Origin: Halioglobus sp.
GTDB taxonomy: Bacteria; Pseudomonadota; Gammaproteobacteria; Pseudomonadales; Halieaceae
NCBI GenBank assembly: GCA_020443425.1
Contig: JAGRIE010000042.1
Span: 1 to 33,109, forward strand
Length of the DNA stretch: 33,109 nucleotides
Direction: 5' to 3'
Shown: positions 1,804-21,958 of the stretch, piece after piece
How positions within the stretch are numbered: position 1 is the first letter of the stretch
How the letters are laid out: each line of letters starts with the position of its first letter
Translations under genes and position numbers: made by a program
The notes under the pieces: model-generated
Told to the model about the DNA's origin: nothing
The model's input: the letters and a program-made list of their open reading frames with translations, nothing else
Databases searched by the model: none

Positions 1804-2232
1804 ACGGCGGCGAAATACGCCCAGGGGAACCCCTGCAGGGCATAGCCGTGACACTATTTTTTACACAGCGCCCATCCCGCATCGAGCGCATGAATATATT
1901 TCCTTTTAAAAACATCAACCTATGGATATCCGGTACGCAATTTGCCTTTCAAATGGGGCCTGAATGGACTATTGCGCGGCGAGTAACTGTGAGCAGCGGA
2001 CCACAACACTGGACATTTCGCCAGCACAGAAATACCGCGCAATCGGGCGATCCCACCGCGGCCATCTGCCCGCGGGACAACGGTCAAGGTATGGAAAATC
2101 AGTTTGTACTAGTGCGAATACGGTAGCCTTTCGATAGAATCGCTCTAAAAATAAACCCAGCGTAGCCTGCCTGATTGGTGCCGATGCGTACCAAGGGGCA
2201 TTTTGCGGCATAATTATAAGAGGAACACCCCA
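1804..2232. other. Intergenic region of 429 bases without a convincing gene
   Basis: This gap is more AT-rich than its flanks, especially about 1850-1960. The open frames inside it (up to 92 codons) have no ribosome site and no protein-like composition. A short inverted repeat ATTTG/CAAAT with a 5-base loop lies at 1940-1954 and could be an operator half-site pair. A TAGAAT hexamer at 2135-2140 is a possible -10 box for the cytochrome gene, but no good -35 box is found at normal spacing. I read the region as the control region of the downstream cytochrome gene. Confidence 0.5.
2218..2225 (+). promoter_or_regulatory. Ribosome binding site choosing the ATG at 2233
   Basis: AAGAGGAA lies 7 bases before ATG 2233. 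The frame also opens at TTG 2203 with AAGGGG upstream, but the ATG places a normal signal peptide at the N-terminus, so it is preferred. Confidence 0.6.
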
Positions 2233-5196
2233 ATGCCGAGCACCAGAATTCCACGCCGCCCGCTGTTTCGCCTTGCGGCCTACATTTTCAGTTGCATAGT
2301 GTCAGCGACGGCGTTCACCGCCGCAGCGACAGCACAGCCCTCGTTCATTACGTTTGAGAGCGGCCATGTAAGGCCGGTGGCGACCACGCCGGACGGCACC
2401 CGCCTGCTCGCTGTCAACACCCCGGACAACCGGCTGGAGGTGTTTGACGTGAACGGAGGCTCGCTAACGCATATCGACTCCATACCGGTCGGCATGGAAC
2501 CCGTTTCAGTCGCCGCACGCAGCAACACTGAAGTCTGGGTGGTAAACCACCTGTCAGACAGCGTCAGCATCGTCGACCTCTCCGCCAGCCCGGCCAAAGT
2601 GGTGCGAACACTGCTGGTAGGCGACGAACCCCGCGACATTGTGTTTGGCGGAACCGGTTTCAATCGCGCCTTCATCACCACAGCCCACCGCGGTCAACAC
2701 CGCACAGACAGCTCCATCGCCTCCGTACCCGGTGCCGGTGACCCCCAGCTGCACACGGGCGGAATTGGCCGTGCGGATGTCTGGGTGTTTGATGCCGCCA
2801 ACCTCGGCACCACTGTGGGTGGCACGCCGCTCGAGATTCTCAGCTTTTTTGCCGACACGCCCCGCGGGCTGGCGGTGACCCCGGATGGCGCCACCGTGTA
2901 TGTGGCCGCATTCCAGTCGGGCAACCAGACCACCTCCATCATCGAAACCGAAGTGCCCAACGGATTCGGCCCCAACGGAGCCCCCGGCCCCAACGCCAAC
3001 TGCTACCAGACGGACAGCGATCCAGCCTGCGAACAGAGTGTCTCAGCACCTGAGGTGGGTGTGATCGTCAAGTACGACGGCAGTAAATGGGTCGATTCCA
3101 AGGGCAAGGACTGGAGCAACAAAGTCAACTTCAACCTGCCGGATCACGACGTGTTCTCCATCAACGCCAACACGCTGGATGCGGGCTCCGTCGTCGAGTA
3201 CGACCATGTCGGTACGGTACTGTTCAACCTCGTGGTCAACCCCGTAACCGGCAAAGTGTATGTCACCAATACGGAACTGCCCAATCACATCAATTTTGAA
3301 GGCCCCGGTATTCACGGCGGCAGCACCGTACAGGGCCGGCTGTCGGAATCCCGCATCTCGGTGCTCAATCCCGCGAACGCAGGCGTCGATGTCCAGCACC
3401 TGAACCAGCACATTGACTACTCGCAACTCCACACCGATGCCGGTGCCGACCACGCTGCAATCAATGCACAGCGGCAGCACAGCCTGGCGACACCCTTGCA
3501 ACCGGTGGTGTCCAGCGACGGGGAAACCCTGTACGTAGCGGCCTATGGCTCCGCCAGAATCGGCGTATTTGACGTCGAGGATATCGAGGACGCGAATTTT
3601 GAGAATGCGTTCGATCCCACTGCGGCCAGCGCCAACTATATACAGACCGGCGGCGGTCCCAGCGGCATGGTGCTGGACGAGGGCAACAACCGGCTCTATG
3701 TACTGACGCGCTTTGACAACCAGGTCGAGGTAATCGACCTGGCCACCAACACAGCGGTGGAGACCCACTCACTGCACAACCCCGAGCCGCCTGAAGTCGT
3801 CGCGGGGCGGCCATTCCTGTACGACGCCTTTGCCACCTCGGGCAATGGCGAGGCCTCCTGTGCCAGCTGTCATATCTTCGCCGACACGGATCAGCTCGCG
3901 TGGAACCTCGGCAATCCTGACGACCACATCACAACCAACACGCAACCGGCATCTATCCCCATCAATGTCTCCACCTCGTTCCACCCGATGAAAGGGCCGA
4001 TGACAACACAGACCCTGCGCGGTATGGCGACACATGGCGCCCTGCACTGGCGCGGCGACCGCGTGGACGGTTTCTTCGGGATTGACCCCTGTGCCGAGCC
4101 CTCGGGCGCGCCCTGCTCGGAGGACTCCTCCTTCCGTAACTTTATTGTCGCGTACGAGGGGCTGGTCGGCATGGAAGGCACTATCAGCAACAGCGAAATG
4201 CAGCAATTTTCCGATTTCGCGATGAAAATCATGCTGCCACCGAACCCGATTCGCGCGCTGGACAACTCGCTGTCCAGCGCCGCGGCACAGGGTAAAGCCC
4301 TGTTCAACGGCCGCGTCACAGACGCCATTCGCAACTGCAACGGCTGCCACACGCTGGACCCACTCAATGGCTTCTACGGCACAGGCGGCGAGCAGAGCTT
4401 CGAGGGTGAGACACAGAACTTCAAAGTCCCGCATATGCGCAACCTGTACCAGAAAATCGGCATGTTCGGGCTGTCCTCAAACAACGTCTTCACGGGCGAC
4501 CAGGTCAGGGGCTTCGGGTTTTTGCACGATGGCTCCGTCGATACAGTGGATCACTTCCTAGAAGCCAACCTGTTCAGCCTGAACGATGCCGAGGAGTCCA
4601 TCCTGGAGGCGTTCTCGATGGAGTTTCCCACCGACCTCGCACCGATCGTCGGCCAGCAGGTCACGATGACAGCCAACAATGGCGCAGTCGCGAATCCACG
4701 CATCGACCTGTTGATCAACCGCGCCAGCGCGAATTTCGATTCACTGATGCTGGGCGGCACGGTGAAAGAGTGTGACCTTATCGTCAAAGGCACATTCGAA
4801 GGCGCCGAGCGCGGCTGGGTGCGCGAGGCCAACGGGCAGTTCCGCTCCGATGTCGGCGACCTCGTCAGCGATGCCACACTGCGCAGTTACGCGGCCTCAC
4901 AGGGCCCGCTCACCTATACCTGTGCACCTCCGGGATCAGGTGTCCGTATGGGTATCAATCGCGACGAGGACATCGTGCTTGACGGCCTCGACAACTGTCC
5001 CGCCGTGGCAAATGACGACCAGAAAGATACCAACAACAACGGTATCGGCAACGCCTGTGACCCGGTCACTGACAGTGACCGCGACGGTGTGCCGGACGAT
5101 TTCGATAACTGCCCGGCAATACAGAATCCCGACCAGACAGACAGCAATGGCGATGGCAGGGGCGATGCCTGCGAGCACTTGCCGCCCGGCTGCTAG
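2233..5196 (+). CDS. Secreted YVTN beta-propeller / dihaem cytochrome c protein with thrombospondin type 3 repeats
   Basis: A 987-residue exported protein with three parts. The signal peptide covers about residues 1-35 (RRPLFRLAAYIF, then AATAQ). Residues about 36-520 form repeated beta-propeller blades of the YVTN/lactonase-like kind (for example VSIVDLSASPAKVV and VEVIDLATNTAVE, with PDGTRLLAVN and PDGATVYVAA turns). Two c-type haem sites follow: CASCH at 543-547 and CNGCH at 702-706. The region around GFGFLHDGSVDTVDHFL resembles MauG/cytochrome c peroxidase-like dihaem proteins. The last 70 residues (about 917-985) carry DxDxDG-type calcium loops with DNCP and GDACE, typical of thrombospondin type 3 repeats. 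It should act in the periplasm or outside the cell, as an oxidase, peroxidase or electron carrier; the substrate is unknown. The closest analogy is MauG-like enzymes, but specific function is not shown by sequence. Confidence 0.88.
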   Translation: MPSTRIPRRPLFRLAAYIFSCIVSATAFTAAATAQPSFITFESGHVRPVATTPDGTRLLAVNTPDNRLEVFDVNGGSLTHIDSIPVGMEPVSVAARSNTEVWVVNHLSDSVSIVDLSASPAKVVRTLLVGDEPRDIVFGGTGFNRAFITTAHRGQHRTDSSIASVPGAGDPQLHTGGIGRADVWVFDAANLGTTVGGTPLEILSFFADTPRGLAVTPDGATVYVAAFQSGNQTTSIIETEVPNGFGPNGAPGPNANCYQTDSDPACEQSVSAPEVGVIVKYDGSKWVDSKGKDWSNKVNFNLPDHDVFSINANTLDAGSVVEYDHVGTVLFNLVVNPVTGKVYVTNTELPNHINFEGPGIHGGSTVQGRLSESRISVLNPANAGVDVQHLNQHIDYSQLHTDAGADHAAINAQRQHSLATPLQPVVSSDGETLYVAAYGSARIGVFDVEDIEDANFENAFDPTAASANYIQTGGGPSGMVLDEGNNRLYVLTRFDNQVEVIDLATNTAVETHSLHNPEPPEVVAGRPFLYDAFATSGNGEASCASCHIFADTDQLAWNLGNPDDHITTNTQPASIPINVSTSFHPMKGPMTTQTLRGMATHGALHWRGDRVDGFFGIDPCAEPSGAPCSEDSSFRNFIVAYEGLVGMEGTISNSEMQQFSDFAMKIMLPPNPIRALDNSLSSAAAQGKALFNGRVTDAIRNCNGCHTLDPLNGFYGTGGEQSFEGETQNFKVPHMRNLYQKIGMFGLSSNNVFTGDQVRGFGFLHDGSVDTVDHFLEANLFSLNDAEESILEAFSMEFPTDLAPIVGQQVTMTANNGAVANPRIDLLINRASANFDSLMLGGTVKECDLIVKGTFEGAERGWVREANGQFRSDVGDLVSDATLRSYAASQGPLTYTCAPPGSGVRMGINRDEDIVLDGLDNCPAVANDDQKDTNNNGIGNACDPVTDSDRDGVPDDFDNCPAIQNPDQTDSNGDGRGDACEHLPPGC

Positions 5197-5269: not shown

Positions 5270-6058
5270 ATGTATCCACAGGGACTGTTTGGCATTGAGG
5301 CACTGCAGCTGCTGATTCTGCCGATTGCGGTATTCGGCATGCTGTTTTTTATCCTCTACCTGCGGCAGGACGGCGTGCGGGTCACCCGCGCGGTGGTGCT
5401 GCTGCTCCTGCTGGGCGTGATCGGCTTCCTCGGTGCCAAGGGGTTTTCCCTCTATGTTCGCGGATGGGAACTCTACCAGCCGCTGTCGCAGGAATTGCGC
5501 GGCGGCCTGCGCTATCCCGGCGCCCTGCTGGCAATGGTGCTGTTGGGACCGCTGCTGAAACGGTGGCTGCTGCCGGCTTTACCGCTGGGTCGCTTTCTCG
5601 ACGTACTGGCGATTACAGTCTGCTTCGCGTTTGCGCTGGTGCGCTTCAGCTGCTGGATGAACGGTTGTTGCACCGGGGCGCCCTGCACCGGCGCGCTCTG
5701 CCTCAGCTACGCCCCCGGCAGCCAGGTGTGGTACGCGCACTGGCAGCACGGCCTGCTGGCATCACCCACCGATGGCAGCCTGCCGGTGCTGCCGCTGCAC
5801 TTCCTGTTCATGGCCGCGTCGTTTTCCGTGGGCGTTTTCCTGATGTGGTTTGATGGCAAACGCAGTTTTGACGGCCAGATCGCCCTGCTTTACTTGGTGC
5901 TGCACGACGGCGCCAAGGGGCTGCTGGAATCCTTCCGAGACCCGTATGTCGCGCAACTGCAGGTGACATCACTGCTGACCAGCGCGGCGGGGCTGATTGC
6001 GCTGCTCGCCATCCTGCACTGGCGACGCACAAGGGCTTCCCGCCGTCCGGCAGGGTAG
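5270..6058 (+). CDS. Prolipoprotein diacylglyceryl transferase (Lgt)-like membrane protein, divergent
   Basis: A 262-residue, very hydrophobic protein with about seven membrane segments. It matches the Lgt fold at RFSCWMNGCCTG (residues 125-136), equivalent to the family's GRIGCFLNGCCYG, and at the C-terminal FDGQIALLYLVLHDGAKGLLES (about 200-221 region), equivalent to the segment ending in RF(I/L)(I/V)E. Lgt adds diacylglycerol to the lipobox cysteine of prolipoproteins in the inner membrane. Residues that differ from E. coli Lgt are notable: Y82 lies where His103 is expected, K216 where Arg239 is expected, and the N-terminal WYG motif is missing; R125, N131 and E220 are kept. It may be a paralogue with a changed job rather than the housekeeping enzyme. 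It follows the cytochrome gene after 73 bases in the same direction. The ribosome site is weak (GAGC). Confidence 0.75.
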   Translation: MYPQGLFGIEALQLLILPIAVFGMLFFILYLRQDGVRVTRAVVLLLLLGVIGFLGAKGFSLYVRGWELYQPLSQELRGGLRYPGALLAMVLLGPLLKRWLLPALPLGRFLDVLAITVCFAFALVRFSCWMNGCCTGAPCTGALCLSYAPGSQVWYAHWQHGLLASPTDGSLPVLPLHFLFMAASFSVGVFLMWFDGKRSFDGQIALLYLVLHDGAKGLLESFRDPYVAQLQVTSLLTSAAGLIALLAILHWRRTRASRRPAG

Positions 6059-6183: not shown

Positions 6184-7119
6184 GTGACATCCGCAAGCCA
6201 ACCAGACCCCGCACCTCAATGGCAGCGCGACTTCCTGCAAAGGCATCAATTGCGTGACGCCTACCTAGATAGTGCACGGCAATGGTTCACGCCATTGGCA
6301 CAGGCGCTCGCCTCGCACCAAAATAGTGCAGAACGCCCGATACTGGTCGCTCTCAATGGCTGCCAGGGCTCTGGGAAAACCACCGTTTGCGACTTCCTGT
6401 GCACTGCACTCAAAGCAGAGCACGGCTTGAACGCCGTGGCCCTCTCACTGGATGACTTTTACCTCACCAGGGCACAGCGACAATCTCTGGCGACCTCAGT
6501 GCACCCCCTGCTGGCGACGCGGGGTGTGCCGGGCACCCACGACATGGCGCTGATGCAGGACATCCTGGGGCAATTGCTCGACCCGCAGCGCACTGACGCT
6601 GTGGCGATTCCCCGGTTCGACAAGGCCGCAGACGACAGGCGCCCCCAGTCCGCGTGGGACCGCGTGCCTGCGCCGCTACAGATTGTACTGCTGGAGGGGT
6701 GGTGCCTGGGCGCGCAGCCGCAGCCCCCGGAGCAGTTGGCGCAACCGGCCAATGCGCTGGAGCAGGCAGAGGACCCCGGGGGAGACTGGCGCGGCTACAG
6801 CAACACCCTGCTGGGCGACGCATTCCAGGCGCTGTACAGGCTCGTGGACCAGTGGATCATGTTGCGCGCACCCTCCTTTGAGTGTGTTTTCCAGTGGCGA
6901 CAGGAGCAGGAGCGCAAACTGGCGGCCACTGTGGACGCTGCGCAGCCCAACGCACTGATGGATGACGCCGCACTGACCCGGTTCATCCAGCACTACGAGC
7001 GACTCACCCGGCAGTGCCTCGATACGCTCCCCGACAAGGTCCATCACCTGTTTACACTGGACGACCGCCGCCAGATCACCGGCTATACCCACCGACCGCA
7101 CAGAGGGGCCGGGCTGTGA
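6184..7119 (+). CDS. D-glycerate 3-kinase (plant/Tda10-type P-loop kinase)
   Basis: A 311-residue cytosolic P-loop kinase. The Walker A motif is GCQGSGKT at residues 59-66 and LSLDDFYL follows at 88-94, the pattern of the uridine-kinase-like superfamily that includes plant glycerate 3-kinase (GLYK). These enzymes turn ATP plus D-glycerate into 3-phosphoglycerate. Later blocks VPGTHD and PRFDKAADDR are also typical, as is the LLEGWCLG strand. The start is GTG at 6184 with ACAGG about 7 bases before. It is the first gene of a four-gene operon and overlaps the next gene by four bases. Because the last gene of the operon should release D-glycerate, the context supports glycerate as the substrate: this enzyme would feed 3-phosphoglycerate back to the synthase. 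A related P-loop kinase of unknown substrate is the alternative. Confidence 0.85.
   Translation: MTSASQPDPAPQWQRDFLQRHQLRDAYLDSARQWFTPLAQALASHQNSAERPILVALNGCQGSGKTTVCDFLCTALKAEHGLNAVALSLDDFYLTRAQRQSLATSVHPLLATRGVPGTHDMALMQDILGQLLDPQRTDAVAIPRFDKAADDRRPQSAWDRVPAPLQIVLLEGWCLGAQPQPPEQLAQPANALEQAEDPGGDWRGYSNTLLGDAFQALYRLVDQWIMLRAPSFECVFQWRQEQERKLAATVDAAQPNALMDDAALTRFIQHYERLTRQCLDTLPDKVHHLFTLDDRRQITGYTHRPHRGAGL
7102..7107 (+). promoter_or_regulatory. Ribosome binding site choosing GTG 7116
   Basis: AGAGGGG-type sequence inside the end of the kinase gene, 8 bases before GTG 7116. It favours this start over the upstream ATG at 7014, whose extra 34 residues look like out-of-frame kinase sequence. Confidence 0.6.
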
Positions 7120-7958
7120 ACGGGAACGCACCGAGCCTGCTGGTGTTCAGCGATCTGGACGGTTCACTGCTGGACCACCACAGCTACAGCTTTGCGCCCG
7201 CCCTGCCACTGGTCAAGACACTGGCGGAACGGGGAATCCCGCTGATACTGGCGTCCAGCAAAACCCGCGCCGAGATGCTCGAGTTGCGTCTGGCGCTGGG
7301 CAATACCCAGCCCTTCATTGTCGAAAATGGGGCGGCTGTATTCATCCCCCGGCACACGTTCCCCGCCCCGCCCGTTGGCACGCGGGAGCTTGGTGACTAC
7401 TGGGTCTACGAAATGGCTCCCGCACGATCGAAATGGCTGGCGCTGCTGGCGGACCTGTCAGCAGAGTTCCCCGGCGAGTTTGACTCCTTCCACAGTGCCG
7501 GTGTCGCCGGTATTGTGGAGATGACCGGGCTCTCTATGACGCAGGCACAGGCCGCCAACGACAGGTTCTACAGCGAGCCTGTCCGGTGGCTGGGCAGTAA
7601 GGCGCGCGAAACCCTGTTCACCCGTCGTCTGCGCGATGCCGGTGCCACCGTACTCAAGGGCGGCCGCTTCCTGTCCGTCAGCGGCAACTGCGACAAGGGG
7701 CAGGCATTGCGCTGGTTGCGAGCGCGCTACCAGCAGCAGGCAGGGGGCACTGCGCTGAAAGATCTCGCCATCGGCGACAGCGAAAACGACTGCTCCATGC
7801 TGGAAGCGGCACATACTGCACTGCTGATCCGTTCACCGGTCCACGACTTCCCGGCCCTGGGCAAAGTCGACGGCGTGCTGCGCAGCAGTGCGTGCGGACC
7901 GGCCGGATGGGCACAAGGCGTCTCGCAATGGTTACAATCCAATGGCATCTCAACATAA
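7116..7958 (+). CDS. Mannosyl/glucosyl-3-phosphoglycerate phosphatase (HAD family IIB)
   Basis: A 280-residue cytosolic HAD phosphatase of the mannosyl-3-phosphoglycerate phosphatase (MPGP) type. Motif I is FSDLDGSL with nucleophile D13 and D15; motif II is the Ser of LASSKTRAEM; motif IV is IGDSENDCSML with D221 and D225. The early block VENGAAVFIP is also characteristic. In this operon it should remove phosphate from glucosyl-3-phosphoglycerate to give glucosylglycerate; MPGP-type enzymes are known to accept both sugar forms. The GTG start overlaps the kinase stop (GTGA), which points to translational coupling, and the synthase gene begins 12 bases after its stop. Length is normal for the family. 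Because the adjacent synthase is a GpgS and not an MpgS, the glucosyl substrate is the likelier one. Confidence 0.88.
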   Translation: MNGNAPSLLVFSDLDGSLLDHHSYSFAPALPLVKTLAERGIPLILASSKTRAEMLELRLALGNTQPFIVENGAAVFIPRHTFPAPPVGTRELGDYWVYEMAPARSKWLALLADLSAEFPGEFDSFHSAGVAGIVEMTGLSMTQAQAANDRFYSEPVRWLGSKARETLFTRRLRDAGATVLKGGRFLSVSGNCDKGQALRWLRARYQQQAGGTALKDLAIGDSENDCSMLEAAHTALLIRSPVHDFPALGKVDGVLRSSACGPAGWAQGVSQWLQSNGIST

Positions 7959-7970
7959 GGCAGTCTCAAG

Positions 7971-9197
7971 ATGGGTGACTTCTACCAGAACGGCATCATT
8001 ACCACACTGCACAATCTATCCAATCGGTCGCTGCAGGACCTCGAACAGGAACTTCTGGCATTTTCCGCCGCCCGCCCCATGGGGCTGATCCTGCCCTCGC
8101 TGTACTCCGAGCTCGGCGGCAATGCGCTGCCCGGCATTATCGAAGAACTGGTGCAGGTCCCCTACCTCGCCGAGATTGTGATCGGCCTCGACCGCGCGGA
8201 TGAATCCCAGTACCGCGAGGCACTGAAGTTTTTCAGCCCCCTGCCGCAGCACCACCGCGTGCTGTGGCATGACGGCCCACGGCTACAGGCCCTCGATGCC
8301 AGACTGCACGAGCAGGGCCTGGCGCCGCGGGAACTGGGCAAGGGCCGCAATGTCTGGTATTGCATGGGGTTTATGCTGGCCAACAACCGCTCGGAATCCG
8401 TCGCCCTGCACGACTGCGATATCGTCACCTACAACCGCTCGCTGCTGGCGCGGCTGATCTACCCGGTCGCGAACCCCCGTTTCAACTACGAATTCTGCAA
8501 AGGCTATTACGCGCGTGTCGCGGACGGCAAGATCAACGGGCGCGTCAGTCGATTGCTGGTGACGCCGCTGCTGCGCGCACTGAAGAAAGCCCTGGGGGAC
8601 CTGGAGTACATCGAGTATATGGACAGCTTTCGCTATCCACTGGCGGGGGAGTTCTCGTTCCGGCGCGACGTCCTCAACGACATCCTGATCCCAAGCGACT
8701 GGGGGCTGGAGATCGGGGTGCTCTCCGAGATGTACCGCAACTATGCGAAAAACCGCCTCTGCCAGGTCGACATTGCCGACAGTTACGATCACAAACACCA
8801 GAGCCTGTCGGCGGCAGACGACAGCGGCGGCCTGTCAAAAATGTCGATCGATATCGCCAAGGCACTGTTCCGCAAGCTGGCGACCCGGGGCGTGACATTC
8901 AACTCCGAACTGTTCCGCTCGCTGAAAGCCACCTACTACCGTATCGCGCTCGACTTTGTTGAAACCTATCACAACGACGCCGTGATGAACGGGATGACCC
9001 TGGATATTCACGCCGAGGAGCAGGCGGTGGAGCTGTTTGCCGAGAACATCATCAAAGCCGGCGAGGCCTTTCTGGACAGCCCGATGGAGCGCCCCTTTAT
9101 CCCTAGCTGGTCGCGCGTCATCAGCGCCATCCCGGATGTGCTGGACCAGCTCAGCGCCGCAGTGGAAGCGGACCACGACGAATTCATGGCGGGGTAA
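7971..9197 (+). CDS. gpgS: Glucosyl-3-phosphoglycerate synthase (GT81)
   Basis: A 408-residue glycosyltransferase that should join glucose from an NDP-glucose donor to 3-phosphoglycerate, the committed step to glucosylglycerate. The N-terminal half holds a GT-A fold with [20 protein letters not shown] and the metal-binding DCD at 148-150 ([11 protein letters not shown]). GKGRNVW before it and the later [14 protein letters not shown] (about 222-235) and SDWGLEIG are hallmarks of GpgS proteins of the Persephonella/proteobacterial branch. There is no signal peptide. AAGGCAG precedes the ATG, and the phosphorylase gene starts 5 bases after the stop. Mannosyl-3-phosphoglycerate synthases are a different family, so I am confident of the glucosyl call on sequence pattern, though the nucleotide of the donor cannot be told. 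Confidence 0.9.
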
Positions 9198-9202
9198 CTC
9201 AG

Positions 9203-10969
9203 ATGCCGGAGAGTGGCGAAAACACAGGGGCACTGCTGGAGCGGGTACGACACCATATCCAGGAGATCTATCACGACAACCCTCTGGACGCCGATCTCGA
9301 CGGCCTGCCGGAAGCACTGCTGGCACTGATGCGGCTGGATCACTCCACCGACGAACCGCCGCAACATGTGAGCCACTGGGACCAGCGCGATGCACTGATG
9401 ATCACGTATGGGGACAGTATCCGCCTCGAGGGCGAGAAGCCGCTGGTGACCCTGAAACGCTTTCTCGACGAGTGGACAGATGGCGTCGTGAGCGGTGTGC
9501 ATATCCTGCCCTTCTACCCCTGGACCTCGGATGACGGTTTTTCGGTGCTGGATTACTCCAGCGTCAACGAGGCGCTGGGCGACTGGAACGACATCCGCAA
9601 TATCGCCGATGAGTACGACCTGATGGCGGACCTCGTCATCAATCACTGCTCTATCCGCAGCGTCTGGTTTGAGAATTTCCTGGCTGACCGGGAGCCCGGC
9701 AAAGGCTATTTCTACACCGCCAGTCCGCAGGATGACCTCAGTGCCGTGGTGCGCCCGCGAACGACGCCGCTGCTGCAGGAGGTGACCGCGGTCGACGGCA
9801 CGCGGCATGTCTGGTGCACTTTCAGCCCTGACCAGGTCGATCTCGATTTTCGCAATCCCCAGGTGCTGAAGCAGTTCGTTTCAATTGTCCGCCAGTACCT
9901 GGACAGCGGTGTCAGGATATTCCGCCTCGACGCCGTGGCGTTCCTGTGGAAGATCCCCGGCACCACCTGCCTGAACCTGTACGAAACCCATGAGGTGGTG
10001 CGTCTGCTGCGCACGCTGGTGGAGCACGCGCGTACCGATACCGTATTGATTACAGAGACCAATATCCCGCACCGGGAAAACCTGTCCTATTTTGGCAACG
10101 CCAACGAAGCGCACTGCGTCTACAATTTCTCGCTGCCCCCCCTGCTGGTCTACGCGCTGGTCACCGGTGACTGCACCTATCTGAAACAGTGGATGATGAG
10201 TATGCCGCCGGCACAGAACGGCACCGCGTATTTCAACTTCATTGCCTCCCATGACGGCATCGGCCTGCGACCCGCCGAGGGCCTGTTGTCAGACGCGGAG
10301 TTGGAGCGGCTGATTGGTGCTATGGAGGGATTCGGCGGGCATGTCTCCTACCGCGCACTGGAAGGCGGCCAGCGCAAGCCCTACGAAATCAATATCTCGC
10401 TGATCGATGCGCTGCAGGGTACCGTCGACGGGCGCGATGCATGGGGTACCGAGCGATTCATTTGCGCGCATGCCATCATGCTGGCCCTGGAGGGAATTCC
10501 CGGAATTTATATACACAGCCTGCTGGGGACCCACAACGACTACGAGCGTGTCGAGAACAGCGGGCACTACCGCGCCATCAATCGCCACCAGTGGGATATG
10601 CAGACGCTGAGTGCACTGCTGGCCGATACCGGGAGCGAACCGGCGCAGATCTTCTCGCGCCTGAAAGCGCTGCTGGCCATTCGCAGGCGCCAACCCGCCT
10701 TCCACCCCAACGCGGTACAGTACACACTGCACCTGGGCCCGGGCATCGTCGGTTTCCGGCGCGACAGCAGTGATGCAGGGCAGAGCATCTTCTGCATCAG
10801 CAATATCTCGGACAGCGAGAAATGCCTCGCGCTGTCGGACGTCAATCTCAGTCACGACGAGCAGTGGCAGGATCTCATCAGCGCCGGGCAATCTGCGGAG
10901 CAGGATGGGGAACTGCTGTTACAGCCCTACCAGACTGTCTGGCTCTCGAATACCGCCTTTCACACCTGA
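9203..10969 (+). CDS. GH13_18 phosphorylase, probably glucosylglycerate phosphorylase
   Basis: A 588-residue sucrose-phosphorylase-like enzyme of glycoside hydrolase family 13 subfamily 18. The catalytic trio is visible: nucleophile D243 ([10 protein letters not shown]), acid/base E285 ([16 protein letters not shown]) and stabiliser D351 ([10 protein letters not shown]). True sucrose phosphorylases have EIHDHY-type sequence after the acid/base residue; the TNIPHREN form belongs to the branch characterised as glucosylglycerate phosphorylase, which converts glucosylglycerate and phosphate to glucose 1-phosphate and D-glycerate. The operon setting with gpgS, the phosphatase and glycerate kinase fits that substrate very well. 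No signal peptide, so it acts inside the cell. Sucrose 6'-phosphate or glucosylglycerol phosphorylase are the other options within the subfamily and are less consistent with the neighbours. Confidence 0.88.
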
Positions 10970-11138
10970 ATCGACCGCGAGCTGCTGGCAGGGACCAGTG
11001 TCGCCGGGGCGTCACCCCCCCGAAAACAGGTACCGTTACACGGCGACCACTGGATATTGTTCGCCCCAGCCCTGATAATTTCACTCCCGCCGAAGACGGA
11101 ACCGCCGCCGGCCATTGATATTGCAGGACTGATACACC

Positions 11139-16178: not shown

Positions 16179-17672
16179 ATGGAGAATTTGCTCGAGCTGC
16201 GCGATGTCAGCCTGGTGTACCGCGCACTGCCCGCCCTGCGAAATATCAATTGGACCGTGTCCAGCGGACAGCAGTGGGCCTGCCTGGGCCCGAATGGCTC
16301 CGGTAAAACCAGTCTCGCAAAGATCCTCAGCCGACAGGCCACGCACTACTCCGGCGACGTTGTACGCAGCGCAGGACTGCAGCAGGCGGGCGTCGCCTAT
16401 GTCTGCTTCGAGCAGGCGCGCACACTGTGCGAGCGCGACAAGAAGCTGGATGACTCGGAGTTCCGCGCCGATGCCAGCGACCCCGGCACGACCGTGGAAA
16501 AACTGATTCTGTCCGGCCGTGAACCGGATGAGCGCTTCGACCACTGGACGGAGCGGCTGCGCATGCGCCATTTCCTGCACCGCGGCCTGCGTTTCATCTC
16601 CACCGGCGAAATGCGGAAAACGCTGTTGGTCTCGGCCATCCTGAGCGAGCCCGCGCTGCTCATCCTGGACAGTCCACTGGACGGCCTGGACCGCGCCAGC
16701 CAGCGCGAGATGCACGCGGTAATCAACGAACTGCTGCACTCGCGCATCACTGTGCTTATGCTGTGTCGGCAACCGGAGGATGTACCCGCCGATATTACCC
16801 ACGTCATGGTACTGGATGAGGGGCGGGTACTGGCCTGTGGCACACGGGAGTCGACGCTGGCCGATGCACAGGTCCAGGCCCTGATGAACCCGCCGATGGC
16901 CGCACTGGGCGAGTTGCCCGCAGCCGCCGCGCGGCCCTATTCACTGCCGCCGGATGTCCCCTTGCTGGCACTGCACAATGTCTCGGTGCAGTACGGCGAC
17001 CAGGTGGTACTGCGGGACGTTAACTGGGTTATGGAGCGAACAACCCACTGCTGCATATCAGGCCCCAACGGCTGCGGCAAAACCACACTGCTGAGCCTGG
17101 TCACAGGTGACAACCACAAGGCGTATGGCCAGGACATCACCCTCTTTGGCATCCGGCGCGGCAGCGGAGAGAGCGTCTGGGATATCAAGCAGAAATTCGG
17201 CCAGTTGGACACCCAGTTACAGCTGAACTTCGCGCGCGGTATGCGTGTGGTGGAGGTGGTAGTATCGGGTTTCTTTGATTCCATCGGCCTGTACGACGAC
17301 TGGGGTGACGCCCAGCGCACCAGTGCAGAGCAGTGGCTGGGGGCGCTCGGGCTCTCGGCGTTCAGCCGCGAAAAATACGACGAGCTGTCCTTCGGTCTGC
17401 AGCGCATGGTGCTGCTGGCCCGCGCGATGGTCAAATCGCCGGTTATCCTGCTACTGGACGAACCGACACTGGGTCTGGACGGCTATCACCGCAGGCTACT
17501 GCTGCGAGCACTGGACCATATCGCCCAACACAGCGACACACAGCTCATTTTTGTCAGCCACTCCGCGGGGGAGACACCGGCCTGTATCAACCAGCACATG
17601 GTGTTTGAACCGCGTGACGACGGCTTTGAGCTGGTGTGCCACCAGGAAGACCCTAGGCCGGCCGGATCCTGA
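16179..17672 (+). CDS. modF: ModF-type protein with two ABC ATPase domains
   Basis: A 497-residue soluble protein with two fused ABC ATPase domains and no membrane part. Walker A motifs are GPNGSGKTS (37-45) and GPNGCGKTT (295-303); signature motifs are ISTGEMRK and LSFGLQRM. The stretch DITLFGIRRGSGESVWDIK is highly characteristic of E. coli ModF (PhrA), as is SGFFDSIGLYD. In domain 1 the Walker B motif ends LILDSP, with S165 where the catalytic glutamate is expected, and no H-loop histidine is seen (LMLCRQ). Domain 2 has LLLDEP and FVSHS, so it looks catalytically complete. ModF is linked to molybdate transport in E. coli but its real task is unclear, and no modABC genes are present here. 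Its last 20 bases overlap the end of the convergent RND gene. Confidence 0.88.
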   Translation: MENLLELRDVSLVYRALPALRNINWTVSSGQQWACLGPNGSGKTSLAKILSRQATHYSGDVVRSAGLQQAGVAYVCFEQARTLCERDKKLDDSEFRADASDPGTTVEKLILSGREPDERFDHWTERLRMRHFLHRGLRFISTGEMRKTLLVSAILSEPALLILDSPLDGLDRASQREMHAVINELLHSRITVLMLCRQPEDVPADITHVMVLDEGRVLACGTRESTLADAQVQALMNPPMAALGELPAAAARPYSLPPDVPLLALHNVSVQYGDQVVLRDVNWVMERTTHCCISGPNGCGKTTLLSLVTGDNHKAYGQDITLFGIRRGSGESVWDIKQKFGQLDTQLQLNFARGMRVVEVVVSGFFDSIGLYDDWGDAQRTSAEQWLGALGLSAFSREKYDELSFGLQRMVLLARAMVKSPVILLLDEPTLGLDGYHRRLLLRALDHIAQHSDTQLIFVSHSAGETPACINQHMVFEPRDDGFELVCHQEDPRPAGS

Positions 17673-20600
17673 AGCATACGGAGTACAGCGTCGGCACCAC
17701 AATCAGCGTCAGCACCGTAGCAAAGCCAAGCCCCGCCATGATGGTGATGGACATGTTCACAAAGAAGACGTCAGCCAATAGCGGGATCAGCCCCAGGATA
17801 GTGGTTGCGGCCGCCAGCATCACCGGTCGCATGCGGCTGACACAGGAATCGAGAATCGCTGCAAAGCCCTCCTTTCCGGTGTCGATCTGCTGGTCGATCT
17901 CCTCAATCAGTACAATGGCATTCTTGATCAACAGCCCCACCAGCGACAGCGCCCCCAGCATCGACATGAAATCAAACGAACCGCCAGTGGCCAGCAGCCC
18001 GGCGGTGATACCGATGATGGCCAGTGGCACGGTGAGCCAGATGATCGCAGGCTGCCTGAGTTTGCCGAACAGGAAAATACTGGTGAGTATCATCAGCAGG
18101 AAGCCAACCGGGAGCGAGGCGCCGAGTCCGGCCTGGGCATTGATGGAATCCTCGTACTCGCCGCCCCACTCCAGCTGGTAACCGGGCGGCAGCTCGATCG
18201 CCTCAATCTGCGGGCGCAGTTCCTCCAGCAGGGGGTCCGCGGCGCCGCCGCGAGGGTTGCAGGATGCGATGATCGTCTGGATGCGATCGCGACCGCGTAT
18301 GACGGCGTTTTCCCAGCGTGTCTCGTAGTCGGATACGACCTGCGAAACCGGCACTGACGCCCGCAGTACCGGGCTCCAGACCTGTATATCCCGCATATTG
18401 TCAATGTCACCACGCTCATCCAGCGGCGCGCGCATCCGTATCGGCAACAGGCGGTTGCCATCGCGGTATACCCCCACGCTGGTGCCTTCAAAGGCGTATT
18501 GCATAGACGCACCAAGGCTTTCGCGATCCACACCCAGCTGGCGACCGACCTGCTCATTGAAGATGGGCGTGGCCACTTTGACCGGCGAACGCCAGTCATC
18601 CCGGATATCCACGGCACTGCCATTGGCGCGCATGATCGCCTGCGCCTGCTCTGACAGCTGGCGCAACACTACCGGGTCAGGACCGGAGAAGCGGGCTTCA
18701 ATCTTGGCGTCACGCCCAGGCCCGATGCGCATGGCCTTGATAATGGGATCTGTCCATGACAGCTCCTCGCGCATGAAGGTCTGCACGGCCTCCCACACGG
18801 GCGCTATCTGCTCGCGGGTCTCAGTGCGGACAATGATCTGGGCGTAGGCGCGCGTCGGTTCCTTGGCATCGTAGACCAGTGTGAAACGCTGGTGGGGGCC
18901 GCCGACTACCGACGTCGTCTGCACCACACCCGGTTGCTGGCGGAGGAACTCGCTGACACGGAGGGTATCGTCGCGGGTCACCCGGATATCGACACCTTCA
19001 GGCTCCCAGATGTCCACGAAAAAAATCGGCGTATTGGAATCCGGGAAGAAACCACTCTTGACGTTGCCGAAACCCACCGCTGCCAGCGCAAACAAGACCA
19101 CGACCACACCCAGCGTCATCCAGCGATGCCTGATCGCCACCGCCACGGCACCGCGATAGCCGCGAAACAGCCTGCCGCTGTAGGGATCCTTGTCCGACGC
19201 GCCGGCACCGGGTTTCAGCAACAGCGCACACAGGAGCGGCGTCGTACTGATCGCGGTCAGCCAGCTCAGCGACAGCGAGATGAGAATGACGTAGAACAGC
19301 GAACTGGCAAATTCACCGGTATTATCGGTCGACAGACCGATCGCCGAGAACGCCAGGATACCAATTACCGTGCCGCCGAGCAGTGCCCAGATAGTCTTGC
19401 CGACCGCTTCCCCGGCGGCTTCATTGGCCTTCATGCCCGCTTCCATGCGCACCAGCATGCCCTCGGCCACCACAATCGCATTATCCACCAGCATACCGAG
19501 CGCAATCACCAGCGCACCCAGTGAGATACGCTGCAGTTCGATACCGAACACGTTCATCAGGAACAGGGTGCCGGCGACAGTAATCAGCAGCACAGCGCCA
19601 ATGACAAGCCCCGTGCGGAGGCCCATAAACAGCAGCAGCACGGCAATTACGATCAACACGGCCTGGCCAACGCTGACCAGGAAACCGCCCACGGATTTTT
19701 CAACCTCCGCGGGCTGATCGTAGACGGTGACCATTTCCATCCCGACCGGGATGACGGTCTGCAGGGAGTCCATCTTGCGACTCACCGACCGCCCGACTTC
19801 CACCACGTTTTCACCCGCCGCCATCGAGATGCCGATACTCAGACCCGGCTTGCCATTGATGTAGTAGAGTTTTGCCGGCTCTTCCTCGTAGGCGCGAGTG
19901 ATGGTGGCGAAGTCGCTGAGGCGCACCAGTGTTTTGTCACTGGCACTGATCAGCAGATCACCGATCTCCTGCACTGACTTGAAGTTGCCCGTGGGGCTGA
20001 TGCGCAGGTAGTCGTCACCCACTCGGACATTCCCCGAGTTTACGACCACATTTTGCGAACCCAGCACATTGGCGATCTGTTGCAGGTCGATACCCAGTTC
20101 CGCCATGCGACTGCGGGACACTTCAAGATAGGCCACCTCGCGCTGCTCACCGTCGATGACAACCTTGCGCACGCCGGGGACCAGCACCAACTGTTTCTTT
20201 ATCGCGTCGGCGGTATCGTAAAGATCGCGCCAGCTGTAGCCGTCCCCGGTGAGCATCATATAAATGCCGTAGACGTCACCAAAGTCGTCGAGAATGATAG
20301 GGGCCTGCGCGCCGGGCGGCAGCGAGGGTTTGACGTCGGCGATCTTGCGTCGCAATTCGTCGAATATATTGGGCAGGTCCTTCGCTTTATACTCGTCCTT
20401 GAAATCGACCAGGATATCCGACAGTCCCGGTCGGGACACGGACATCTTGATGCGCTTCACCTGCGGCATCTTCTGGATCGCATCCTCAAGGTGATAGGTT
20501 AGCTCCTCCTGCACCTCGCGCGCCGTGGCACCGGGATACGGGGTGAGGATTTTCGCCGACTTGATGGTAAATGCCGGGTCTTCCAGCTTGCCCATTTTGC

Positions 20601-20688
20601 CGTAGGCGATGATCCCGCCACCGACCATGATCACCACCAGCAACCAGGAGATGACCTTGTTCTCGACCGAAAATTCCCCAATATTCAT
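17653..20688 (-). CDS. RND efflux permease (AcrB/HAE-like)
   Basis: A 1011-residue inner-membrane proton-driven pump, with the usual two repeats of one membrane helix, a large periplasmic domain and five or more further helices. The conserved transmembrane motif is GMLVDNAIVVAEGM with D402 followed by N403, where AcrB has two aspartates; K922 (LIKNAIVLIEE) matches the essential lysine of helix 10. The N-terminus (FSVENKVISWLLVVIM, then LEDPAFTIKSA) is typical of the less-studied proteobacterial branch of hydrophobe/amphiphile exporters. It starts 31 bases after the adaptor gene. No outer-membrane TolC-like gene is in the window, so it must borrow one. Substrates cannot be told from sequence. 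Confidence 0.93.
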   Translation of the reverse strand: MNIGEFSVENKVISWLLVVIMVGGGIIAYGKMGKLEDPAFTIKSAKILTPYPGATAREVQEELTYHLEDAIQKMPQVKRIKMSVSRPGLSDILVDFKDEYKAKDLPNIFDELRRKIADVKPSLPPGAQAPIILDDFGDVYGIYMMLTGDGYSWRDLYDTADAIKKQLVLVPGVRKVVIDGEQREVAYLEVSRSRMAELGIDLQQIANVLGSQNVVVNSGNVRVGDDYLRISPTGNFKSVQEIGDLLISASDKTLVRLSDFATITRAYEEEPAKLYYINGKPGLSIGISMAAGENVVEVGRSVSRKMDSLQTVIPVGMEMVTVYDQPAEVEKSVGGFLVSVGQAVLIVIAVLLLFMGLRTGLVIGAVLLITVAGTLFLMNVFGIELQRISLGALVIALGMLVDNAIVVAEGMLVRMEAGMKANEAAGEAVGKTIWALLGGTVIGILAFSAIGLSTDNTGEFASSLFYVILISLSLSWLTAISTTPLLCALLLKPGAGASDKDPYSGRLFRGYRGAVAVAIRHRWMTLGVVVVLFALAAVGFGNVKSGFFPDSNTPIFFVDIWEPEGVDIRVTRDDTLRVSEFLRQQPGVVQTTSVVGGPHQRFTLVYDAKEPTRAYAQIIVRTETREQIAPVWEAVQTFMREELSWTDPIIKAMRIGPGRDAKIEARFSGPDPVVLRQLSEQAQAIMRANGSAVDIRDDWRSPVKVATPIFNEQVGRQLGVDRESLGASMQYAFEGTSVGVYRDGNRLLPIRMRAPLDERGDIDNMRDIQVWSPVLRASVPVSQVVSDYETRWENAVIRGRDRIQTIIASCNPRGGAADPLLEELRPQIEAIELPPGYQLEWGGEYEDSINAQAGLGASLPVGFLLMILTSIFLFGKLRQPAIIWLTVPLAIIGITAGLLATGGSFDFMSMLGALSLVGLLIKNAIVLIEEIDQQIDTGKEGFAAILDSCVSRMRPVMLAAATTILGLIPLLADVFFVNMSITIMAGLGFATVLTLIVVPTLYSVCFRIRPA

Positions 20689-20719
20689 GCGGCGGGTATC
20701 CTTGAGTCTGTCGCTGGGT

Positions 20720-21859
20720 TCACAGTGGATCGTCGGCGCGGGGAACGGCCTGTTCGGTCACCGCCATACGCGACACTTGCATCCCTTCGGCCAGATAGGG
20801 TGCCCCCACGGCGACAATCTCCTCTCCGCCTGCCAGCCCATCCTTGACCTCTACCATGCCGCCGCTCATGCGCCCGATGCTCACCTCCTGCGCTGAGACG
20901 GTCATGGTCTCGGGGTCGAGCACCCAGACGCGAGGCTTGAGGGCGGCGTCCGCCTGTACCGCGCGCACCGGCACTCGCTTAACCACACTGTGGTCATCAA
21001 TCAATTCACTGAGATCGAGTACCACCGTGGTCGTCATACCAGGCAATACGGTGAAACTGGAGGGCGATTGCATGGTGAACGTGGCCCTGAAGGTCTGGGT
21101 CTGCGCATCGGCCTTGGTCGCAATTTCCTTGGGTGTCAGCACAAACTGCTCATTCGTCTGCCCCTCAAATACGGCGTAGGCACCGGTGACACTGACCCGC
21201 TCATCGGCGCTGATGGAGCGCTGTTCCTCATCGAGCGCGCGCACCATGCGTATCACCGATTCTGGCACGTCGATAATAATGTCCAGCAGGCTGGTATTCT
21301 GGAGCGAAAAAATCGTCTGCTTGGCCAGCACTTCCTCGAAGTTCTCCACCTGCCGCTGCGCGACACGGCCGCGAAAGGGTGATTTCAGCACGGTGTACTC
21401 GAGGTCCTTTTCCGCCTGTGACAGCGCCGCCGAGGCGGAGCGAAAACTGGCCTCCATACGGTCAAAATCCATACGCGATATATTGCCGTCGGCGACGAGA
21501 TCCTTGCCGCGCTCGTAGTTACTCTGGGAGTTGTCGAAAGTGGCTTTCCTGTCCTCGTATACAAGCCGGTAATCAGTGGGGTCCAGACGCGCCAACACCT
21601 GCCCCTCCTCTACCCGATCGCCTTCCTTGACCAGGATCTCCTGCAGTCGCCCGGGCACCCGGAACGACAGCTCAGCGCGCTGGCTGGCATCCACCCTGCC
21701 CGGGAAGGTGCGTATCGCGTCGGCGTCGCCACCCTCGACGACAAAGGTCTTGACCGGTCGGGTGGGCAGCGGGGCGTCTGGCTCCTGGGCATCACCACAG
21801 GCGACCAGCGTCGCCAGCATCAGGCTCAACACGGCAGCCTTTTTTGTAGAATCCAGCAT
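20720..21859 (-). CDS. RND periplasmic adaptor (membrane fusion protein), lipoprotein
   Basis: A 379-residue adaptor that should bridge the RND pump and an outer-membrane channel. It begins with a lipoprotein signal, the lipobox LVAC giving lipidated C21. A biotinyl-lipoyl-like half is seen at GRLQEILVKEGDRVEEGQ, followed by an alpha-helical hairpin (about residues 95-145), the second lipoyl half (YTVLKSPFRGRVAQR) and beta-barrel and membrane-proximal domains. The ATG at 21859 was chosen over the upstream ATG at 21922 because AAGGAG lies 9 bases before it and it gives a correct lipoprotein signal. It is followed by the pump gene, forming a two-gene operon. Confidence 0.93.
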   Translation of the reverse strand: MLDSTKKAAVLSLMLATLVACGDAQEPDAPLPTRPVKTFVVEGGDADAIRTFPGRVDASQRAELSFRVPGRLQEILVKEGDRVEEGQVLARLDPTDYRLVYEDRKATFDNSQSNYERGKDLVADGNISRMDFDRMEASFRSASAALSQAEKDLEYTVLKSPFRGRVAQRQVENFEEVLAKQTIFSLQNTSLLDIIIDVPESVIRMVRALDEEQRSISADERVSVTGAYAVFEGQTNEQFVLTPKEIATKADAQTQTFRATFTMQSPSSFTVLPGMTTTVVLDLSELIDDHSVVKRVPVRAVQADAALKPRVWVLDPETMTVSAQEVSIGRMSGGMVEVKDGLAGGEEIVAVGAPYLAEGMQVSRMAVTEQAVPRADDPL

Positions 21860-21868
21860 CGAAAGGCA

Positions 21869-21874
21869 CTCCTT
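21869..21874 (-). promoter_or_regulatory. Ribosome binding site of the adaptor gene
   Basis: AAGGAG on the minus strand, 9 bases before ATG 21859. It rules out the 21-residue longer form that would hide the lipoprotein signal. Confidence 0.65.
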
Positions 21875-21958
21875 GGTCAATCTTATTCCTGCATCATACT
21901 GGTGTGGCACACCCGGCTCCATACATTGTGCATGGTTTCGGCTGGCGGGCGACGGCTG

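What the first reader, a model, noticed from the sequence alone, without database searches (positions are those of the whole stretch)
6184..10969. A closed glucosylglycerate cycle in one four-gene operon
Glycerate kinase, a MPGP-type phosphatase, GpgS and a GH13_18 phosphorylase are packed with a 4-base overlap, a 12-base gap and a 5-base gap. The first three and the last have opposite metabolic directions: synthase and phosphatase make glucosylglycerate from 3-phosphoglycerate, the phosphorylase breaks it to glucose 1-phosphate and D-glycerate, and the kinase returns glycerate to 3-phosphoglycerate. The individual families are known. The joining of synthesis, phosphorolysis and glycerate salvage in one unit implies either rapid turnover of an osmolyte or its use as a carbon and phosphate-saving reserve. 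No dedicated regulator sits in the cluster, so control may be by metabolites or salt.
Basis: partly seen in the sequence, partly recalled or inferred. Interest (0 to 1): 0.8.

Follow-up and report, generated by a model that had tools for sequence, protein, structure and literature searches.

The report
Known glucosylglycerate synthesis-and-recycling operon
A marine bacterium keeps the genes that make a small sugar-acid stress protectant next to the genes that break it down and recycle the pieces; the grouping was already described, but in several related bacteria two of the genes are joined into one.

Summary
In detail: four same-strand genes at 6184-10969 encode a D-glycerate 3-kinase-like kinase (GLYK), an MPGP-family phosphatase (GpgP), a GpgS homologue and a GH13_18 phosphorylase, joined by a GTGA overlap, a 12-base and a 5-base gap. 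The phosphorylase carries the published glucosylglycerate phosphorylase (GGaP) signatures, as does E. coli YcjM. The grouping is in print: a 2020 review states that GGaP genes are frequently accompanied by glycerate kinase, GpgS or GpgP, and a 2024 Prochlorococcus study describes a glucosylglycerate operon and recycling to 3-phosphoglycerate. The window is a new example, probably Halieaceae-like. Three details I did not find in the papers searched: in a draw of 115 genomes of the order, 54 of 54 with both GpgS and GGaP have a glycerate kinase of one of three families, against 33 of 59 with neither; the kinase-phosphatase junction can be read as a 4-base overlap in 30 of 55 separate loci; and the two are one protein in 15 loci, needing 7 changes on a GpgS tree (at least 4 well supported). 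Most likely use: a synthesis-plus-salvage unit for a secondary osmolyte or reserve, run one way at a time, since running both halves together wastes nucleoside triphosphate. No activity was measured.

The parts
6184..7119 (+). D-glycerate 3-kinase-like P-loop kinase (GLYK), 311 aa, GTG start
   Evidence: phmmer to 7xpc, 1odf, 6ckg; G59, Q61, G62, G64, K65 of the P-loop invariant in a 13-row alignment; match from residue 1 in L001 and L002
7116..7958 (+). MPGP-family HAD phosphatase, predicted glucosyl-3-phosphoglycerate phosphatase (GpgP), GTG start
   Evidence: TIGR01486 over cut-off; 1xvi and 3ztw chains; GTGA overlap with the kinase stop
7971..9197 (+). predicted glucosyl-3-phosphoglycerate synthase (GpgS), 408 aa
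   Evidence: NF040724 E 2e-106, below its equivalog cut-off; solved GpgS chains, weak
9203..10969 (+). GH13_18 phosphorylase, predicted 2-O-glucosylglycerate phosphorylase (GGaP), 588 aa
   Evidence: GH13_18 chains; TETN at residues 284-287 and loop A Glu395, as in E. coli YcjM
7116..7119 (+). GTGA stop-start overlap between kinase and phosphatase, the junction that is fused in some relatives
   Evidence: read directly; a 4-base overlap can be read in 30 of 55 loci with separate genes

Best explanation
The four genes are one unit for glucosylglycerate. GpgS joins glucose from a nucleotide sugar to 3-phosphoglycerate and GpgP removes the phosphate, giving glucosylglycerate, a secondary compatible solute or reserve. 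When it is no longer needed, GGaP splits it with phosphate to glucose 1-phosphate and D-glycerate, and the plant-type glycerate kinase returns glycerate to 3-phosphoglycerate. Shown here: gene order, family membership, specificity signatures, co-occurrence. Inferred: the reactions, the osmolyte role, co-transcription, and control by enzyme-level or global signals that keeps the two halves from running at once.
For: Families. GGaP signatures (T/S)ETN and loop A Glu, as defined in PMC7178133, are present in 122 of 122 aligned proteins, E. coli YcjM included. Of 115 genomes of the order, GpgS and GGaP are both in 54 and only one of the two in 2 (Fisher p 1e-30, not corrected for kinship). A glycerate kinase of one of three families is in 54 of those 54, against 33 of 59 with neither gene (p 1.6e-9, uncorrected). 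In the 40 relatives without a linked GLYK, 34 have GLYK elsewhere, 3 others a GK-II, 2 others a GK-I, 1 none found. The own genome has one GLYK and no GK-II or GK-I. Kinase and phosphatase are one frame in 15 loci, with both sets of motifs intact in 15 of 15.
Against: No enzyme, metabolite or transcript was measured. GpgS scores well below the NCBIfam equivalog cut-offs. GLYK is not linked in 40 of 73 judgeable relatives, so one four-gene operon is not the rule. GLYK also occurs in 14 of 115 genomes without GpgS, so it has other uses. Two other kinase families can stand in; E. coli's own two glycerate kinases make 2-phosphoglycerate (PMC4378991), so closure at 3-phosphoglycerate is not needed everywhere. 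One genome with GGaP but no GpgS match (G099) has none of the three kinases. In 9 of 45 close GpgS-GGaP pairs the two point opposite ways, so they are not always co-transcribed. No convincing promoter: 2 promoter-like sites against 1.5 expected, none between 5900 and 6184. The genome also has an ectoine synthase, so glucosylglycerate need not be its main osmolyte.
Confidence: 0.88

Rival explanations
1. The phosphorylase works in the synthetic direction (glucose 1-phosphate plus D-glycerate), so the operon holds two parallel routes to glucosylglycerate, with the kinase balancing free glycerate.
For: The GGaP reaction is reversible and used for synthesis in vitro (PMC11009771 passages).
Against: Cells usually hold far more phosphate than glucose 1-phosphate (recalled), which favours phosphorolysis; the kinase removes the glycerate that synthesis would need; 54 of 54 genomes with GpgS and GGaP have a kinase.
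Confidence: 0.08
2. The unit serves uptake and use of external glucosylglycerate or glycerate (scavenging), with synthesis secondary.
For: E. coli ycjM lies beside ABC transporter genes; a putative transporter belongs to the Prochlorococcus operon. In 7 Pseudoalteromonas loci a nucleobase-symporter-like gene lies directly upstream and a gene resembling sugar-binding proteins directly downstream on the other strand.
Against: No transporter gene in the window's unit; the 12 neighbour clusters annotated in the 80 loci gave no sugar or glycerate transporter shared across clades, though other clusters were not annotated. The synthesis genes are kept with GGaP in 80 of 80 loci.
Confidence: 0.07
3. 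The product is mannosylglycerate or another glycoside, since the phosphatase family is named after mannosyl-3-phosphoglycerate.
For: The best phosphatase models are MPGP models.
Against: The synthase matches GpgS models and chains, and the phosphorylase carries glucosylglycerate signatures.
Confidence: 0.03

Closest known systems
Glucosylglycerate metabolism operon of Prochlorococcus NATL2A (PMC11631117, passages seen)
   Same: Glucosylglycerate genes co-located in one operon; genes for recycling to glucose 1-phosphate and 3-phosphoglycerate described
   Different: Cyanobacterial, with a putative transporter; 'glycerate kinase' does not occur in the main text and I did not compare sequences
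GGaP gene neighbourhoods in Franceus & Desmet 2020 (PMC7178133, passages seen; the 2017 original was not held)
   Same: GGaP frequently accompanied by genes for a glycerate kinase, GpgS or GpgP
   Different: Kinase type, order, overlap and fusions are not given in the passages seen
Synechococcus sp. PCC 7002 A2021-A2023 (PMC10873239) and Synechococcus WH8102 SYNW2434-2436 (PMC2874817), passages seen
   Same: PCC 7002: GpgS, GGaP and GpgP with consecutive locus tags. WH8102: GpgP SYNW2434 in one predicted operon with SYNW2435, GpgS is SYNW2436
   Different: No kinase named with them in the passages seen
E. coli ycjM locus (NC_000913.3, L081)
   Same: GGaP with the same signatures, 39% identical
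   Different: No GpgS, GpgP or glycerate kinase annotated in the 18 kb fetched; it sits with ABC transporter and kojibiose phosphorylase genes

Membership tests
2-O-glucosylglycerate phosphorylase (GH13_18) | (T/S)ETN motif at the end of strand 5, and Glu instead of Gln in loop A (PMC7178133) | tested here: met
   TETN 284-287 and Glu395; 122 of 122 aligned proteins including YcjM
2-O-glucosylglycerate phosphorylase (GH13_18) | Strict activity on glucosylglycerate, none on sucrose | not testable with these tools
   Needs an assay
Sucrose phosphorylase | Loop A N(L/V)D(I/L/V)YQ; TIGR03852 over cut-off | tested here: not met
   Loop A reads GGQRKPYE; 202.4 of 334.4 bits
2-O-glucosylglycerol phosphorylase (GH13_18) | Loop A VGAIYQ | tested here: not met
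   Window loop A GGQRKPYE; the 7xdq chain reads VGAIYQ in the alignment
Plant-type D-glycerate 3-kinase (GLYK) | P-loop kinase homologous to solved D-glycerate 3-kinases | tested here: met
   7xpc E 1.9e-22, 6ckg E 3.2e-16
Plant-type D-glycerate 3-kinase (GLYK) | Product is 3-phosphoglycerate | not testable with these tools
   Shown for the Arabidopsis enzyme (PMC4378991 passages); not assayed here
Glucosyl-3-phosphoglycerate synthase | NCBIfam equivalog cut-off of NF040724 or NF010496 | tested here: not met
   356.2 of 700 and 69.4 of 262 bits; homologous, below both cut-offs
Glucosyl-3-phosphoglycerate synthase | Genomic link to GpgP and GGaP | tested here: met
   GGaP beside it in 80 of 80 loci (the set was chosen by GGaP), GpgP in 77 of 80; 54 shared genomes of 115
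MPGP-family phosphatase | TIGR01486 subfamily cut-off | tested here: met
   210.9 bits against 164.75; sugar specificity not tested

The most novel reading that the evidence does not exclude
Kinase and phosphatase of the pathway act as one unit: they are coupled in translation through a widely kept 4-base overlap and have been fused into one bifunctional protein several times independently (7 changes on the tree, at least 4 forced by well-supported branches; gain and loss not told apart). This would mean that glycerate rephosphorylation and glucosylglycerate formation are kept in fixed ratio, or that intermediates pass within a complex with GpgS, so that the kinase serves synthesis as well as salvage.
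Probability: 0.25. Interest if true: 0.45.

Novelty: new member of a known kind. Interest (0 to 1): 0.25.

Why it matters
PMC7178133 says that the exact metabolic function of GGaP has not been confirmed by experiment. A set of marine gammaproteobacteria, some of them named cultured strains (Pseudoalteromonas, Amphritea, Neptuniibacter), carry the compact unit, which makes the role testable. The company of a glycerate kinase in 54 of 54 surveyed genomes, from other families where GLYK is missing, argues for salvage, though the statistics ignore kinship. The natural kinase-phosphatase fusions give one protein on which to test coupling.

Tried and rejected
A first reading placed the loop A Glu in the stretch after the catalytic HDG; it did not fit YcjM (Arg there; 114 of 122 Glu) and was wrong. 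The correct stretch is around residue 395, where 122 of 122 have Glu.

A regulator, transporter or other recurrent partner was looked for in the 80 loci by clustering neighbours and annotating 12 of the clusters by one member each: acyl-CoA ligase, ImuA, a polymerase-like protein, an SDR, a sulfhydrylase, a monooxygenase, DNA polymerase III alpha, a 2-oxoacid dehydrogenase acyltransferase, RNase R, a thiolase, and in 7 Pseudoalteromonas loci a nucleobase symporter and a sugar-binding/LacI-like protein. They recur within clades (at most 19 of 80 loci); no partner is common to all. Other clusters were not annotated.

Promoter scan gave nothing above noise between 5900 and 6184; terminator-like sites were 7 against 3.0 expected (sd 1.7), the one near the end of the unit on the minus strand at 11032-11044.

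Papers: nine searches. Passages were seen of seven papers; the rest are listings. I saw no kinase-phosphatase fusion in them. Glucosylglycerate with glycerate 3-kinase gave 0 papers. The one hit for glycerate kinase, phosphoglycerate phosphatase and fusion is a plant review seen only in the listing. The library holds open-licence papers only.

Not used: structure prediction and fold search.
Full report
What is there. Four + strand genes, 6184-7119, 7116-7958, 7971-9197 and 9203-10969. The junctions read GTGA at 7116-7119, then gaps of 12 and 5 bases. The first is a P-loop kinase like solved D-glycerate 3-kinases (7xpc, 6ckg); Pfam shows only a sub-threshold Zeta_toxin hit over residues 44-92 (20.2 of 22.3 bits), which I take as P-loop likeness and not as an assignment. 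The second is an MPGP-family phosphatase over its cut-off. The third matches GpgS models and chains, below the equivalog cut-offs. The fourth is a GH13_18 phosphorylase. An Lgt-like gene lies upstream (5270-6058), hemL and hemB downstream. In the two closest loci, L001 and L002, the context from the Lgt-like gene to hemB is kept, with GGaP 85% and 82% identical. L002 is titled Halioglobus and L003 Haliea, so the window is probably from a Halieaceae-like gammaproteobacterium (inference).

Specificity. PMC7178133 (passages seen) gives two marks of glucosylglycerate phosphorylase: (T/S)ETN, and a loop A Glu where most others have Gln. The window protein has TETN at 284-287 and Glu395; of 122 aligned proteins (window, E. 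coli YcjM, 120 locus proteins, some of them duplicates) 120 have TETN, 2 SETN and 122 the Glu. These loci were found by similarity to this protein or its operon, so the count shows uniformity, not independent proof; YcjM, annotated as glucosylglycerate phosphorylase and 39% identical, is the useful control.

How common. A scan of genome contigs with the phosphorylase found 138 relatives; the best 80 were kept. GpgS is directly upstream of GGaP on the same strand in 80 of 80 (in L037 only its last 35 residues lie on the contig). GpgP is in 77 of 80; the other 3 are cut at the contig start. GLYK is linked in 33, absent in 40 and unjudgeable in 7. In the 40 genomes without a linked GLYK, 34 have one elsewhere in the assembly, 3 others have a GK-II, 2 others a GK-I, and 1 (G031) none found; no genome of the 40 has two of these families.

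Control draw. 115 genomes of the window's order were searched. GGaP is in 55, GpgS in 55, both in 54. GLYK is in 59: in 45 of the 54 with both, and in 14 without GpgS. The other 9 of 54 hold a GK-I (7) or a GK-II (2). So 54 of 54 have a kinase, against 33 of 59 with neither pathway gene; Fisher p 1.6e-9 without correction for kinship. Left out of this comparison are the two genomes with one gene only: G083 (GpgS; has a GK-II) and G099 (GGaP; none of the three kinases found). Four of the 54 hold both GLYK and GK-I. GpgS and GGaP are within 2.5 kb in 45 of 54, on the same strand in 36 of these; GLYK is within 2.5 kb of GpgS in 37 of 45, same strand in 37 of 37; all three are close together in 31. 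Some unlinked cases are assembly breaks (G051 and G128 have GpgS near a contig end).

Kinase and phosphatase as a pair. All 15 keep the P-loop and both HAD motifs searched for, with no stop between. In 30 of 55 loci with separate genes, the window among them, the junction can be read as a 4-base stop-start overlap (two duplicate pairs are included, and starts are candidates, not proven; no chance expectation was computed). On a GpgS tree of 123 rows (one short row and two duplicates dropped) the fused state needs 7 changes, at least 4 of them forced by starred branches; the tree was a quick one with some long branches, and gain and loss are not told apart. Pairs within one genus differ: L120 fused and L123 with the 4-base overlap, L121 fused and L125 separate. 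Since the genes nearly touch, fusion is mutationally easy, so repeated fusion shows that the pair tolerates joining and is expressed together; it does not prove channelling.

Mechanism. Established chemistry: GpgS makes glucosyl-3-phosphoglycerate, GpgP removes the phosphate, GGaP splits the product with phosphate, a glycerate kinase rephosphorylates glycerate. The Arabidopsis kinase makes 3-phosphoglycerate whereas both E. coli kinases make 2-phosphoglycerate (PMC4378991 passages). Adding the steps with remaking of the nucleotide sugar gives ATP + NTP + H2O to ADP + NDP + PPi per turn (my sum), so both halves running at once is a drain. The best reading is synthesis in one condition and salvage in another, with control outside the cluster. 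The own genome carries an ectoine synthase, so glucosylglycerate may be a second osmolyte; it has one GLYK and no GK-II or GK-I in an assembly about 94% complete.

Known or new. The grouping is known: PMC7178133 says so in words, PMC11631117 describes a glucosylglycerate metabolism operon in Prochlorococcus and recycling to glucose 1-phosphate and 3-phosphoglycerate (passages), consecutive GpgS-GGaP-GpgP locus tags are listed for Synechococcus PCC 7002 (PMC10873239 passages), and a predicted operon is given for WH8102 (PMC2874817 passages). The 2017 original was not held. I did not find the fusions, the conserved overlap or the three-way kinase replacement in the listings and passages of my nine searches, which is weak evidence of absence. 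Hence a new member of a known kind, with modest interest.

Noticed in passing
L052, L057, L059 (Moritella), L063, L066, L068, L069, L071, L076, L077 (Pseudoalteromonas), L118-L122 (unnamed): Natural fusion of the D-glycerate 3-kinase-like kinase and the MPGP-family phosphatase in one frame; 7 changes on the GpgS tree.
   Followed up: yes
G083 (L154) and G124 (L155): Other glycerate kinase families near pathway genes: a GK-II about 2 kb upstream of GpgP-GpgS in a genome without a GGaP match (G083), and a GK-I directly upstream of GGaP (G124).
   Followed up: partly
L063:3589-4839 and L063:10035-11111 and the like in 7 Pseudoalteromonas loci: A nucleobase-symporter-like gene directly upstream of the unit and a gene resembling sugar-binding proteins directly downstream on the other strand.
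   Followed up: partly
window 2203-5196: Large protein with beta-propeller repeats, two CxxCH sites in its translation and thrombospondin type 3 repeats near the C-terminus.
   Followed up: no
window 5270-6058: Lgt-like protein (Pfam LGT over cut-off, 32.6 of 118.9 bits for TIGR00544), kept beside the unit in L001 and L002; possibly a divergent paralogue.
   Followed up: no
window 17653-21922, - strand: RND efflux permease and its periplasmic adaptor by family models; the permease scores well below the cut-offs of the named multidrug models.
   Followed up: no
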